This document shows positions 16,282 through 42,077 of a DNA stretch of 47,342 nucleotides, one piece after another. The position numbers and the translations under genes were made by a program. Below the pieces are notes generated by a model. That model did not search any database and was not told the DNA's origin. It saw only the letters and a program-made list of their open reading frames with translations. The stretch is from Planctomycetia bacterium. GTDB taxonomy: Bacteria > Planctomycetota > Planctomycetia > Pirellulales > UBA1268. The DNA is taken from the NCBI GenBank assembly GCA_026401035.1, contig JAPLNR010000044.1:1-47342 (forward strand), read 5' to 3'. Position 1 is the first letter of the stretch; each line of letters opens with the position of its first letter.

Positions 16282-16607
16282 CTTGGCCAACCCGGCACGG
16301 GGCTGCCTATTACCCTCTCGGCGGACGTTCGCTGCGGGCATCCTGCCCTTCGCTCACTGCATGTCCGCTTCGCTTCGCCATCCTGGCTGCGCTCGCTTCC
16401 ATAGCCCGCGAGAGTGTAATAGGCAGCCCCGTGCCTGCCTCAACCGATAGAGGAGGCTTCCGGCGACCCGTACCCCGCTCGCCGGCGTTGCTGACCAGCG
16501 GAGGCAGGATGCCGGAGCGCAGTCAGCATCGAGTGAGCGAAGGGCAGGATGCCCGTAGCGAACGTCCGGCGACGGGGTGCGGGTCGCCCGAAGCCGGTGT
16601 GTCCAAG
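16282..16607. repeat. Composite palindromic element, copy 1 (modules A and B)
   Basis: This element fills most of the 357-nt space between fabH and pepF. Module A has arms 16295-16320 and 16409-16434 (25 of 26 bases complementary); module B has arms 16455-16477 and 16573-16595 (21 of 23). Each encloses about 90 nt. The interior of B, read on the opposite strand, matches that of A through CGGACGTTCGCT, GGGCATCCTGCCC and TTCGCTCACT, so A and B are diverged copies in opposite orientation. The outer ends resemble the CCAACCCGGC seen at the other copies. An open frame begins in module B and runs into pepF, which could mislead start prediction. Confidence 0.88.
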
Positions 16608-16623
16608 AGGAGTGCGCAATTTC

Positions 16624-18435
16624 ATGAGTGACACCATCGTCGAGAAGAAGTTGCCCGCGCGGCGCGACGTGCCCGTCGGTGATACCTGGGATCTGTCGAG
16701 CCTCTTTTCTTCTGACAAAGAGTGGGAGTCGGCGCTGGCGGCCTGGGAACAGCGGATCCCCGGCTTCGCGGCGTTCGCCGGCACGCTGGGTTCGGCGCCG
16801 GAGCGGCTGGCGGAGTGTCTCGCCTATGACAGCGCGGTCGATCGCGAGGGGGACAGGGTCGGCACCTATGCCCACCTGCGGGCCAGCGAGGATCAGGCTG
16901 CCCCCGAGGCCCAGCGGATGATGGGTCGGTTTCAGCACGTGGCCACGCTGGCCGGCGAGAAGGCGAGCTTCATCCGGCCGGAGATCATGGCGATCCCGCC
17001 GGCCACGCTGGCCGCCTGGATGAATCTGCCCGTGCTCGCCGGGTATCGTCTCCTGCTCGAGCGGCTTGTCCGCACCCGGCCGCACGTGCTTTCGGAGCGC
17101 GAGGAAAAACTGCTTGCGATGCAGGGCACCTTTGCCGGCACCGCGGGGAAGGTGTTCCGGCAGTTGACCGACGCCGACATGAAGTTTGGCGGCGTGACGA
17201 CGGGGCAGGGTGAGCGGGTCGAACTCTCGAATGCGACGTTCGTCACGCTCCTGCACGACACCGTTCGCGACGTGCGGCGGACGGCCTTTCATCAGTTCTA
17301 CGAACAGTATGAGGCCCATTCCAACACGCTCGCCGCCACGCTCTCAGGCTCGGTCGAGCGGGACGTCTACGCGGCGAAGGTGTGGAACCATCCCAGCGCG
17401 GTCGAGGCCGCGCTCTTCGGCGACAACGTGCCGATCGCCGTCTACGACCAGCTCATCAAGGCGGTCCGCGACAATCTGCCGGCGGTGCACCGCTACTACG
17501 ACCTTCGCAAGCGGATCATGGGCCTCGACGAGATCCACTTCTATGACTGCTACGTGCCGCTCGTGCCGGAGCTGGAGCAGAAGCACACCTGGGACGCGGG
17601 TGTGCAGCTCGTCGTCGAGTCGCTCGCGCCGCTTGGCCGGGAGTATTGCCAGCGGCTGGAGCGGGGGCTCTCAGGCCGCTGGTGCGACCGCTATCCCAAT
17701 GCCGGCAAGCAGTCGGGGGCGTTCAGCTCCGGCACCTACGACTCCGATCCCTACATCCTGATGAATTTTCAGGCTGAGGCGATCGAGCATGTCTTCACGC
17801 TCGCCCACGAGGCGGGCCATTCGATGCACACGCGGTTTTCCGCCGAGGCACAGCCCTACGAGTATTCCGGCTACACGATCTTCGTGGCGGAGGTGGCAAG
17901 CACGTTCAACGAGCAACTGCTCGCGCGGCTCCTGCTTTCGCGGGTCAAATCGCCCAAGGAGCGGGCGGCGATCCTCGTCCGTGAGATCGACTCGATCCGG
18001 GCCACGATCGTGCGGCAGACGATGTTCGCCGAGTTCGAGCGGCGGTCGCACGCCTTAGCCGAGGCCGGCGAGCCACTGACGCTCGAGCGGATTCGGGGCA
18101 TCTATCGCGAACTGCTCGCAGCCTACTTTGGGCCGAATTTCGTCGTCGACAAGCAGCTCGAACTCGAATGTCTGCGAATTCCGCACTTCTACAATGCGTT
18201 TTACGTCTATAAATACGCCACCGGCCTTTCGGCGGCGATCACGCTGGCCAAGAAGGTGGCGGAGGGCGGTCCCCGGGAACTTGACGCCTACCTGAACTTT
18301 CTCAAGGGTGGCTGCTCCAAGTGGCCGCTCGATTTATTGCGAGATGCCGGCGTCAACCTCGAGAAGCCGGAACCCGTCGCCACGGCGCTGGCCCAGTTTG
18401 GCCTGCTCGTCGATGAACTGGGAACGCTGTTGTGA
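16624..18435 (+). CDS. pepF: Oligoendopeptidase F, M3 family
   Basis: A 603-residue cytoplasmic zinc peptidase that cleaves short peptides. The metal site is His395-Glu-Ala-Gly-His399 with the third ligand probably Glu423 in FVAEVASTFNE. TYDSDPYILMNFQ before the zinc site and IPHFYNAFYVYKYATG near residue 525 are typical of the PepF branch of M3. The ATG at 16624 (MSDTIVEKK) was chosen because the upstream in-frame extension to 16549 is translated palindromic repeat. Length agrees with the usual 600. It stands alone, between the palindromic element and der. Confidence 0.93.
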   Translation: MSDTIVEKKLPARRDVPVGDTWDLSSLFSSDKEWESALAAWEQRIPGFAAFAGTLGSAPERLAECLAYDSAVDREGDRVGTYAHLRASEDQAAPEAQRMMGRFQHVATLAGEKASFIRPEIMAIPPATLAAWMNLPVLAGYRLLLERLVRTRPHVLSEREEKLLAMQGTFAGTAGKVFRQLTDADMKFGGVTTGQGERVELSNATFVTLLHDTVRDVRRTAFHQFYEQYEAHSNTLAATLSGSVERDVYAAKVWNHPSAVEAALFGDNVPIAVYDQLIKAVRDNLPAVHRYYDLRKRIMGLDEIHFYDCYVPLVPELEQKHTWDAGVQLVVESLAPLGREYCQRLERGLSGRWCDRYPNAGKQSGAFSSGTYDSDPYILMNFQAEAIEHVFTLAHEAGHSMHTRFSAEAQPYEYSGYTIFVAEVASTFNEQLLARLLLSRVKSPKERAAILVREIDSIRATIVRQTMFAEFERRSHALAEAGEPLTLERIRGIYRELLAAYFGPNFVVDKQLELECLRIPHFYNAFYVYKYATGLSAAITLAKKVAEGGPRELDAYLNFLKGGCSKWPLDLLRDAGVNLEKPEPVATALAQFGLLVDELGTLL

Positions 18436-18517
18436 TGGAACAAGTCTTGGGCAAGGCAGATGTACTTTCCGTAGTGGGAGCTGGCGGCAAGCTGCCATGT
18501 TCCTGGTGAATACGGGA

Positions 18518-18538
18518 GGTGAGGGGGCCGCCCTCACC
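18518..18538 (+). other. GC-rich hairpin between pepF and der
   Basis: GGTGAGGG and CCCTCACC form an 8-bp stem with a five-base loop. No T-run follows, so it is not a standard intrinsic terminator; it may slow polymerase or simply shape the der leader. Confidence 0.4.
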
Positions 18539-40711: not shown

Positions 40712-40755
40712 GAGTGCTCGATCGCTCCCGAACTCCAGCCACCGTTGGCCCCGGA

Positions 40756-41757
40756 TCAGGCCTCCTCGGCAAACGCCGAGTCGAATTGCCGGCGGCTCGG
40801 CGCGAAGTCGAGGTTCTGCACGAACTCACAGGCCTCGGCGGCGCCGTGCTCTCGATCCATGCCGCAATCCTCCCACTCGACCGACAGCGGTCCCTCGTAG
40901 CCAATCTGGTTGAGGGCCCGGATGATCTCCTCGAAGTCGACGCCGCCACGGCCCGGCGACCGGAAATCCCAGCCGCGGCGAGGATCGCCGAAATTCAGGT
41001 GGCTGCCGAGGATGCCGCTTTTACCGTTGAGTGTGACGACCGCGTCCTTGACGTGGACGTGATAGATGCGGTCGTGGAACGTGCGGATGAACTCGACGGA
41101 GTCGACACCCTGCCAGTGGAGGTGGCTCGGGTCGAAGTTGAAGCCAAATTCCTCGCGGCGGCCGAGCGCATCGAGTGCCCGCTGGGCCGTCACCGTGTCG
41201 AAGGCGATCTCGGTGGGATGCACCTCGAGCGCGAAGCGCACGCCGCACTCGGCGAAGACATCGAGGATCGGGTTCCAGCGGTCGGCGAATTCCTGGAAGC
41301 CCGCGGCGATCATCGACTCCGGCACCGGCGGAAATGAATAGAGCAGGTGCCAGATGCTCGAACCGGTGAAGCCGTTGACGACCGACACACCGAGTTTCTG
41401 TGCGGCCCGGGCGGTCTTCTTCATTTCTTCAGCGGCACGGCGGTTGACACCGGACGGATTCCCGTCGCCCCAGACATGCGGCGGCAGGATCGTCTTGTGC
41501 CGCTCGTCGATCCGATCGCAGACGGCCTGTCCGACCAGATGGTTCGAGATCGCGTAGACCGAAAGCTCGTGCCGTTCGAGCGCATCCCGCTTCGCGGCAC
41601 AGTAGCCGCTCTCGTCGAGGGCCCGCGTGACGTCGAAGTGGTCGCCCCAGCAGGCCAGTTCGAGCCCCTGATAGCCAAACTCACGCGCCTTGCGGGCGAG
41701 ATCCTCGAGCGGCAGGTCGGCCCACTGACCGGTGAACAGCGTGACGGGGCGGGGCAT
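40756..41757 (-). CDS. Sugar phosphate isomerase/epimerase, TIM-barrel type
   Basis: A 333-residue member of the xylose-isomerase-like barrel family. It opens with VTLFTGQWADLPLEDLARKA and holds the usual metal-site strings: LEVHPTEIAFD near 173, FNFDPSHLHWQG near 207, YHVHVKDAVV near 233 and LSVEWEDCGMD near 293. The protein is cytoplasmic with no signal peptide. The specific sugar cannot be inferred. It is the first gene of the operon that continues with the sialidase-like protein; its upstream region is filled by palindromic and direct repeats. Confidence 0.9.
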   Translation of the reverse strand: MPRPVTLFTGQWADLPLEDLARKAREFGYQGLELACWGDHFDVTRALDESGYCAAKRDALERHELSVYAISNHLVGQAVCDRIDERHKTILPPHVWGDGNPSGVNRRAAEEMKKTARAAQKLGVSVVNGFTGSSIWHLLYSFPPVPESMIAAGFQEFADRWNPILDVFAECGVRFALEVHPTEIAFDTVTAQRALDALGRREEFGFNFDPSHLHWQGVDSVEFIRTFHDRIYHVHVKDAVVTLNGKSGILGSHLNFGDPRRGWDFRSPGRGGVDFEEIIRALNQIGYEGPLSVEWEDCGMDREHGAAEACEFVQNLDFAPSRRQFDSAFAEEA

Positions 41758-41914
41758 GAGGGCTCCTTAAAAAATGAGAAATAATCGGAGGGCGGAAATT
41801 GTGCCAGATTTCGGTGGTTGTGAAAACTGTGGGGGCCTCCGACGCTCCAACGCCGCCGCACTGCATGCTGTTCGGCACAGGATTGCTTGCCCGTGGGACG
41901 TGGCGTGTCGAGTG

Positions 41915-42077
41915 CCTTGCCCAACCCGGCTTCGGGCTACCCGTGCCCCAGCGCCGGACGTTCGCTACGGGCATCCTGCCCTGCGCTCACTCGATGCTGC
42001 CCGCGCTCCGCCATCCTGGCTGCGCTTGTCAGCAACGCCGGCGATGGGGCACGGGTAGCCCAAAGCCTTACTCAACT
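41915..42077. repeat. Palindromic element, copy 3 (single module)
   Basis: A single B-type module between the lptF/G and epimerase genes. Arms 41928-41950 and 42045-42067 are complementary at 22 of 23 positions. The interior contains CGGACGTTCGCTACGGGCAT and CTCACTCGATGC as in the other copies. The left end reads GCCCAACCCGGC. No module A is attached. Confidence 0.88.

What the first reader, a model, noticed from the sequence alone, without database searches (positions are those of the whole stretch)
16282..42077. Family of long composite palindromic intergenic elements at three loci
Three intergenic regions (16282-16607, 31251-31618, 41915-42077) share modules with 22-26-bp nearly perfect terminal inverted arms around a conserved interior of about 90 nt. 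Two loci hold two modules in opposite orientation; one holds a single module. Arms vary between modules yet stay complementary, which suggests compensatory change and a selected hairpin. The ends share CCAACCCGGC-like sequence. This resembles REPIN or MITE-type non-autonomous elements but is larger than usual REPs, and I do not recognise a described family. No transposase is in the window.
Basis: partly seen in the sequence, partly recalled or inferred. Interest (0 to 1): 0.7.

Follow-up and report, generated by a model that had tools for sequence, protein, structure and literature searches.

The report
Y-shaped hairpin repeats in planctomycetes
This bacterial genome carries at least 77 matches to a repeat of about 130 letters that is predicted to fold on one DNA strand into a Y of two small hairpins on a long stem; related species have or lack it at the same spots, so it likely spreads as small mobile DNA that would need another element's enzyme to move.

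Summary
The three loci contain five copies of one ~130-bp module. The genome holds at least 77 module matches at 56 places; 20 of 21 close pairs share one opposed arrangement. Modules occur in 6 of 6 genomes of the genus and 49 of 60 sampled from the family, own genome included, but in 0 of 245 others sampled from the phylum (strict filters). Arms and inner stems covary beyond all 500 shuffles. Each module has two small hairpins whose loop, GGA on one strand, stays nearly fixed while the stems change. Read on that strand, G·T pairs outnumber A·C mismatches 315 to 69, so the GGA strand was likely constrained as a single strand. Element-free counterparts exist for all three window loci. Four copies sit in a MITE-like frame whose ends match an IS630-type insertion sequence of a sister species. 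Best reading: a non-autonomous mobile palindromic family, organised like REPINs but lacking REP tags and a linked RAYT. The GGA loops resemble CsrA sites, but orientation relative to transcription does not support an RNA role.

The parts
16285..16296 (+). left end of the locus-1 composite (CCAACCCGGC-type end)
   Evidence: sequence; end motif counted genome-wide
16299..16429 (+). module 1 of locus 1; small hairpins at 16336-16348 and 16377-16387 (TCC on the plus strand, GGA on the minus strand)
   Evidence: R1 match 115.9 bits; sequence
16461..16590 (-). module 2 of locus 1, opposed; GGA hairpins on the plus strand at 16503-16513 and 16542-16554
   Evidence: R1 match 137.3 bits; sequence
16593..16597 (+). 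GCCGG right end of the locus-1 composite
   Evidence: sequence
31268..31397 (+). module 1 of locus 2
   Evidence: R1 match 117.7 bits
31441..31598 (-). module 2 of locus 2, opposed
   Evidence: R1 match 115.0 bits
31534..31557 (+). different hairpin (ACCGATCCGC-GTTA-GCGGATTGGT) in place of small hairpin 1; the same swap is seen in 14 of 268 modules
   Evidence: sequence; count
31601..31613 (-). CGCCCAACCCGGC end of the locus-2 composite
   Evidence: exact match
41861..41885 (+). degenerate copy of the outer inverted end CAATCCTGTTCGGCACAAGGATTG
   Evidence: fuzzy match with 5 edits; end defined
41918..41930 (+). TGCCCAACCCGGC, left end of locus 3
   Evidence: one-mismatch match
41933..42061 (+). 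single module of locus 3; small hairpins at 41969-41981 and 42010-42020, GGA on the minus strand
   Evidence: R1 match 141.6 bits; fold of the minus strand -89.2 kcal/mol, z -7.25

Best explanation
The three loci belong to a repeat family with at least 77 module matches at 56 places in this genome, whose ~130-bp module is predicted to fold on one strand into a Y (a long arm stem and two small GGA-loop hairpins) and which likely spreads as non-autonomous mobile DNA. Shown: the copies, the opposed pairing, covarying stems with nearly fixed loops, a strand bias of non-standard pairs, and presence or absence at the same sites in related species. Shown for four copies only: a MITE-like frame whose ends match those beside an IS630-type transposase in a sister species. 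Inferred: modules travel as passengers of such inverted-end frames, moved in trans by transposases that act on the frame ends. Inferred: the GGA strand is kept in shape because it is bound as a single strand, likely DNA, by an unidentified protein. Not shown: any movement event, a target-site duplication for the main composite frame, or the transposase of that frame.
For: At least 77 matches at 56 places, 20 of 21 close pairs of one polarity, 14 of the 21 with a 43-45 nt gap. 6 of 6 genus genomes, 49 of 60 family genomes. 20 modules from two genomes of one other genus average 93% identity, up to 99%, which fits recent amplification. Covariation 0.253 against 0.086 in shuffles, 0 of 500. TCC (GGA on the other strand) in 50 of 53 and 53 of 53 rows of A1, 217 and 239 of 247 in the larger set. 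A·C 315 against G·T 69 in that set, the same for modules along (66:13) and against (55:16) co-directional transcription. fabH-pepF gap: 12 of 27 genomes carry a module, 15 do not, including G005 of the same genus with a 39-bp gap. Element-free counterparts for window loci 2 and 3 (L253, L224). Few modules in divergent gaps: 8 of 212, about 60 expected by length. Four own copies with TACGGCTCACACTTGA-like ends 226-243 bp apart; in G003 such ends lie next to HTH_33 and DDE_3 reading frames.
Against: No insertion or excision was seen directly. In the pair with the most similar flanks (L275/L282) the shorter site keeps one arm, so that case looks like loss, not gain. No target duplication was visible for the composite frame. 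TA is part of the end pattern itself, so the TA on both sides of the four MITE-like copies cannot be told from a target duplication. The IS630 link covers 4 of 56 places. All p-values treat related copies as independent.
Confidence: 0.6

Rival explanations
1. A REPIN-type system: the modules are oversized REPs, the opposed pair is the replicative unit, and a RAYT/Y1 (HUH) transposase recognises the GGA-strand hairpins as single-stranded DNA.
For: Fixed opposed pairing, a strand-specific hairpin signature, no visible target duplication. REPINs are described as inverted REP doublets predicted to form hairpins in ssDNA or mRNA (PMC3116915, passages). Y1_Tnp matches in 22 of 60 family genomes. One Y1 gene (L107) has GTAG-type hairpins with GGA/TCC loops on both sides.
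Against: 0 of 21 Y1 genes whose surroundings were held had a module nearby. Y1 is present in 3 of 11 family genomes without a module match and 19 of 49 with one, so it does not track the modules. Own genome: only a Y1 fragment. No GTAG or CGTC tag at the module foot.
Confidence: 0.15
2. A dispersed structured RNA: transcripts of the GGA strand bind CsrA through paired GGA-loop hairpins and titrate it, as CsrB does.
For: The loop core CAGGATG equals the CsrB repeat CAGGA(U/A/C)G, and an optional base just 5' of GGA (7 and 17 of 53 rows) fits the A(N)GGA / ANGGAN loop described for Csr/Rsm sites (PMC7652899, passages). CsrA in 60 of 60 family genomes, 4 matches in the own genome; one own copy aligns with solved CsrA chains. 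G·U-type pairs are tolerated on the GGA strand. Outside modules CAGGATG is the commonest of 64 CA-NNN-TG hairpin cores, 35 against a mean of 2.8.
Against: Single modules between co-directional genes lie 40 along and 33 against transcription, p 0.48; composite modules 12 and 16, p 0.57. Loops are equally kept in both orientations. CAGGATG hairpins outside modules: 3 along, 8 against. 21 unpaired columns are at least 95% conserved, so GGA is not special. 14 of 268 modules have hairpin 1 swapped for one without GGA. The second repeat family also uses CGA loops. I saw no promoter-like sequence; this was not tested by a tool.
Confidence: 0.15
3. The covariation is not selection on a hairpin but template switching inside quasi-palindromes, which copies one arm from the other in a single step; the family is a passive, decaying repeat.
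For: In the 17 variable pairs of A1: 786 Watson-Crick, 98 other mismatched and 8 G·T cells, while 66 G·T would be expected from column composition, so single-step double changes are plausible. Swapped hairpins in 14 of 268 modules, and one site where G058 and G039 share the right half but differ in the left module.
Against: It does not explain nearly fixed loops and 21 conserved unpaired columns, one pair polarity, similar copies at many sites in G013 and G036, or the strand bias.
Confidence: 0.08

Closest known systems
REPINs and GTAG/CGTC REP sequences with RAYT transposases
   Same: Dispersed extragenic palindromes, inverted pairs as a unit, compensatory stem changes; GTAG and CGTC REPs have been reported from Planctomycetes (PMC3733652, passages)
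   Different: Module ~130 nt instead of 20-40 bp; no GTAG/CGTC tag; two inner hairpins with a near-fixed loop; no RAYT found beside a module
Bacterial MITEs (e.g. of IS630/Tc1-mariner type; ERIC-type palindromes recalled)
   Same: Short, non-coding, inverted ends; four copies have ends like an IS630-type element of a sister species
   Different: The shared core is internal and occurs in at least three frames; ends and duplications of the main frame do not identify a transposase
CsrB/Rsm small RNAs
   Same: CAGGAUG / A(N)GGA in hairpin loops, two sites per module
   Different: Dozens of dispersed copies in both orientations; no transcript shown; no Rfam match in the window

Membership tests
REP/REPIN | 20-40 bp palindrome with a GTAG or CGTC tag | tested here: not met
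   module is ~130 nt and the aligned modules show no such tag at the foot; definition from PMC3733652 abstract and passages
REP/REPIN | inverted doublet as the unit | tested here: met
   20 of 21 close pairs in one opposed arrangement; 35 places hold a single module
REP/REPIN | copies flank a RAYT gene | tested here: not met
   0 of 21 Y1 genes whose surroundings were held; 10 further Y1 matches not examined
MITE | short, non-coding, terminal inverted repeats | tested here: met
   CGCCCAAYCCGGC ends, 24-nt outer ends in one subfamily, TACGGCTCACACTTGA ends in four copies
MITE | target-site duplication | tested here: inconclusive
   TA on both sides in four copies but TA belongs to the end pattern; none seen in printed filled/empty pairs of the composite frame, whose flanks are too diverged
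MITE | ends shared with an autonomous element | tested here: inconclusive
   for four copies, matching ends beside IS630-type reading frames in G003, but the frames lie in two pieces on contigs that break there; none found for the other frames
CsrB/Rsm RNA | several GGA motifs in hairpin loops | tested here: met
   two per regular module; both present in 50 of 53 rows of A1
CsrB/Rsm RNA | transcribed small RNA that binds CsrA | not testable with these tools
   no expression or binding data; orientation test gives no support
Any Rfam family | match at gathering score | tested here: not met
   0 matches in the window; only 4 weak hits far below gathering over 41850-42300

The most novel reading that the evidence does not exclude
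A planctomycete family has turned a mobile palindrome into a dispersed CsrA sponge: each module carries a pair of A(N)GGA-loop hairpins, opposed pairs guarantee that read-through from either side transcribes one working pair, and dozens of jumping copies set how much CsrA is free in the cell. It would be a global RNA regulator titrated by a transposable element.
Probability: 0.12. Interest if true: 0.88.

Novelty: new variant of a known kind. Interest (0 to 1): 0.52.

Why it matters
It adds an abundant, apparently lineage-restricted class of palindromic mobile DNA in a phylum whose repeats are little described. Its conserved core lies inside the element, is read on one strand and is shared by several carrier frames, so it allows a direct test of how single-stranded folding constrains small mobile elements. 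The CsrA-like loops give a simple binding experiment with a clear yes or no.

Tried and rejected
Known RNA family: none at gathering score in the window; four weak hits far below gathering in a 451-bp stretch at a permissive threshold. Plasmid origin: no match. Viral carriage: the exact core pattern in 0 viral contigs. RAYT partner: no linkage found. mRNA-borne regulator: orientation test negative and loops kept in both orientations. Chance palindromes: rejected by shuffles and slid controls and by fold z-scores of -6.1 to -7.7 on both strands of two window modules; the neighbouring second repeat, folded in the same call, is no better than shuffles (z 0.04). An integron attC reading (GCCCAAC / GTTGGGC ends, consensus recalled) was considered and dropped untested, because the copies seen lie singly between ordinary genes. 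Literature: no description of this repeat was seen in the listings (open-licence PMC library only; listings, not the papers).

Limits of the counts. A1 holds 53 of 62 cluster representatives; the 9 left out were unusually long or short variants, among them the swapped-hairpin module of window locus 2, so loop counts from A1 are for regular modules. In one search, 21 of 268 modules with fewer than 20 paired cells were dropped. In one search, 194 single modules gave 146 usable (42 lacked a flanking gene, 4 overlapped a gene call, 2 were far). Genes there come from my own hexamer caller, not an annotation. The background comes from loci chosen around modules. One search scored 150 of 5790 candidates, and 2 of its 77 matches are partial. 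One search used strict filters and scored 13 candidates a genome. The runner-up core, CACGATG with 23, is about half fabH coding sequence and half the second repeat family.
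Full report
What was checked. They are there. The model made here (R1) finds five modules in the window at 16299-16429(+), 16461-16590(-), 31268-31397(+), 31441-31598(-) and 41933-42061(+). Locus 1 lies between a fabH-like (ACP_syn_III) and a pepF-like (Peptidase_M3) gene, locus 2 between convergent genes, locus 3 between two genes on the minus strand. Pfam found no transposase domain in the 29 of 32 called genes that were scanned.

Copy number and spread. 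In the own genome (3.77 Mb draft, 82 contigs) R1 gives 78 rows, one of which is the reverse strand of a window module, hence 77 matches, two of them partial (150 of 5790 first-look candidates were scored, so this is a lower bound). They lie at 56 places: 35 single, 20 opposed pairs of one polarity ('+-') and one direct pair; the gap is 43-45 nt in 14 of the 21 pairs. BLAST finds the family in 6 of 6 genomes of the genus and in 49 of 60 sampled from the family, 11 of 12 genera, both counts including the own genome. R1 finds it in 0 of 245 other genomes sampled from the phylum (strict filters). Contig lengths identify G013 with the Jr-14may18-66 assembly.

Anatomy. A module has an outer arm stem (17 counted pairs), a second stem, and two arms that end in small hairpins. 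On one strand each small hairpin reads AGCGNAG-[S/SS]-CAGGATG-[S/SS]-CGNAGCG in consensus (read from A1). Stem letters vary with compensation (columns 42-51: GC 26, CG 20, AT 6; columns 85-94: CG 31, GC 21), while the loop GGA is present in 50 of 53 rows (hairpin 1) and 53 of 53 (hairpin 2). In a larger set of 247 modules it is 217 and 239. A one-base insertion occurs just 5' of GGA in 7 and 17 of 53 rows. Over 38 pairs 90.9% of cells pair, against 80.8% in shuffles and 35-46% when slid; the covariation score is 0.253 against 0.086, 0 of 500 shuffles reaching it. The arm-2 helix, counted separately, scores 0.349 against 0.144, 0 of 500, but its numbers of doubly changed pairs and of pair types are not above shuffles. 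Two window modules fold far better than shuffles on both strands, z -6.1 to -7.7. 21 unpaired columns are at least 95% conserved.

Strand asymmetry. In A1 orientation A·C mismatches outnumber G·T 79 to 14, and 315 to 69 in 247 modules. Read on the GGA strand the A·C are G·T (or G·U) wobbles. By row, 31 lean that way, 3 the other and 19 tie (p 8e-7); by pair 19, 3 and 16 (p 9e-4). Rows are related, so the p-values are only indicative. The bias is the same for modules lying along (66:13) and against (55:16) the transcription of co-directional neighbours. It is therefore a property of the module's history rather than of its present site. I infer that the GGA strand is exposed and constrained as a single strand, likely DNA during movement; a mutation bias on exposed single strands would leave a similar trace. 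Among the 17 variable pairs G·T cells are rarer than column composition predicts (8 against 66), which also fits single-step copying of one arm from the other.

Position. Of 212 placed modules 103 lie between convergent, 101 between co-directional and 8 between divergent genes; by length of module-free gaps in the same loci 20, 131 and 60 would be expected. Single modules between co-directional genes lie 40 along and 33 against transcription, p 0.48; composite modules 12 and 16.

Gain and loss. Of 30 pepF loci fetched, 27 hold fabH too. The gap ranges from 7 bp (G046) to 715 bp (G049); 12 of 27 carry at least one module and 15 none. G005, of the same genus as the window, has 39 bp and no module; G000, G002 and G041 have two modules, G013 and G022 one; some of the module-free gaps carry other palindromes. 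In G058 and G039 the right-hand half and the linker at this site are closely alike while the left-hand module differs in kind, which is consistent with exchange in place. Flank comparison finds element-free counterparts for window loci 2 and 3 as well (L253, L224). In the pair with the most similar flanks (L275 against L282) the shorter side keeps one arm, so that case looks like loss. In genomes G013 and G036, 20 fetched modules average 93% identity with a maximum of 99%.

Carriers. The module sits in at least three frames: (1) the composite with CGCCCAAYCCGGC-type ends, which in one subfamily of eight loci lies inside longer shared flanks with 24-nt inverted ends CAATCCTGTTCGGCACAAGGATTG, complete at both sides in only some of them; (2) in genus g9, single modules mostly between CGGTTC and TCACGGAT; (3) four copies in the own genome between TACGGCTCACACTTGA-like ends 226-243 bp apart. 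In sister genome G003 such ends (1-2 mismatches) lie beside two reading frames with HTH_33 and DDE_3 domains, an IS630-type transposase in two pieces on contigs that end there. TA stands at both sides, but it belongs to the searched pattern, so it is compatible with, not proof of, a TA duplication. This is the only transposase link found.

RAYT and CsrA readings. Y1_Tnp matches occur in 22 of 60 family genomes: 19 of 49 genomes with a module match and 3 of 11 without. None of the 21 Y1 genes whose surroundings were held had a module nearby. One (L107) has GTAG-type hairpins with GGA/TCC loops on both sides. CsrA occurs in 60 of 60, and one own copy aligns with solved CsrA chains. CAGGATG in hairpin loops is the CsrB repeat (PMC7652899, passages). 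Outside modules it is the commonest of 64 CA-NNN-TG hairpin cores, 35 against a mean of 2.8. The runner-up, CACGATG with 23, is about half fabH coding sequence and half a second repeat family. Against a CsrA role stand the lack of orientation preference (3 along and 8 against for the hairpins outside modules), equal conservation in both orientations, many other conserved unpaired sites and the swap of hairpin 1 for a hairpin without GGA in 14 of 268 modules, including window 31534-31557.

Verdict. The finding is real and matches no catalogued family in the sources searched. The best reading is a non-autonomous mobile palindromic family, organised like REPINs but failing two of their defining tests, and in four copies carried by a MITE-like frame of IS630 type. 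The CsrA-sponge reading is kept as the bold case.

Noticed in passing
window 42093-42156 and 42182-42245: A second dispersed repeat, in tandem beside locus 3: CACCAGC-[stem]-GGA-[stem]-GCCAAG-[stem]-CAGGATG-[stem]-CGTG. The same plan with entirely different stems recurs in related genomes, with CGA replacing GGA in some.
   Followed up: partly
L307 about 1270-1750 (G000:C19:57000-59500) and fabH-pepF gaps of G014, G018, G023, G052, G058: A third kind of palindromic module (CCGGCTGCGGGACGGCA...), in tandem at one own site and able to occupy the same composite position as the modules described.
   Followed up: no
L107, about 1368-1388 and 2251: Two GTAG-type hairpins with GGA/TCC loops on either side of a Y1_Tnp match in G058, like classical RAYT-flanking REPs.
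   Followed up: no
window 5847-6157 and 5586-5780: Runs of 15-bp direct repeats inside the large reading frame 3147-6083, coding for repeated peptides; a known cause of length variation, not examined.
   Followed up: no
   Followed up: no
window 31534-31557: The swapped-in hairpin keeps a G·T pair on the GGA strand, the same polarity as the strand bias of the modules (sequence).
   Followed up: partly
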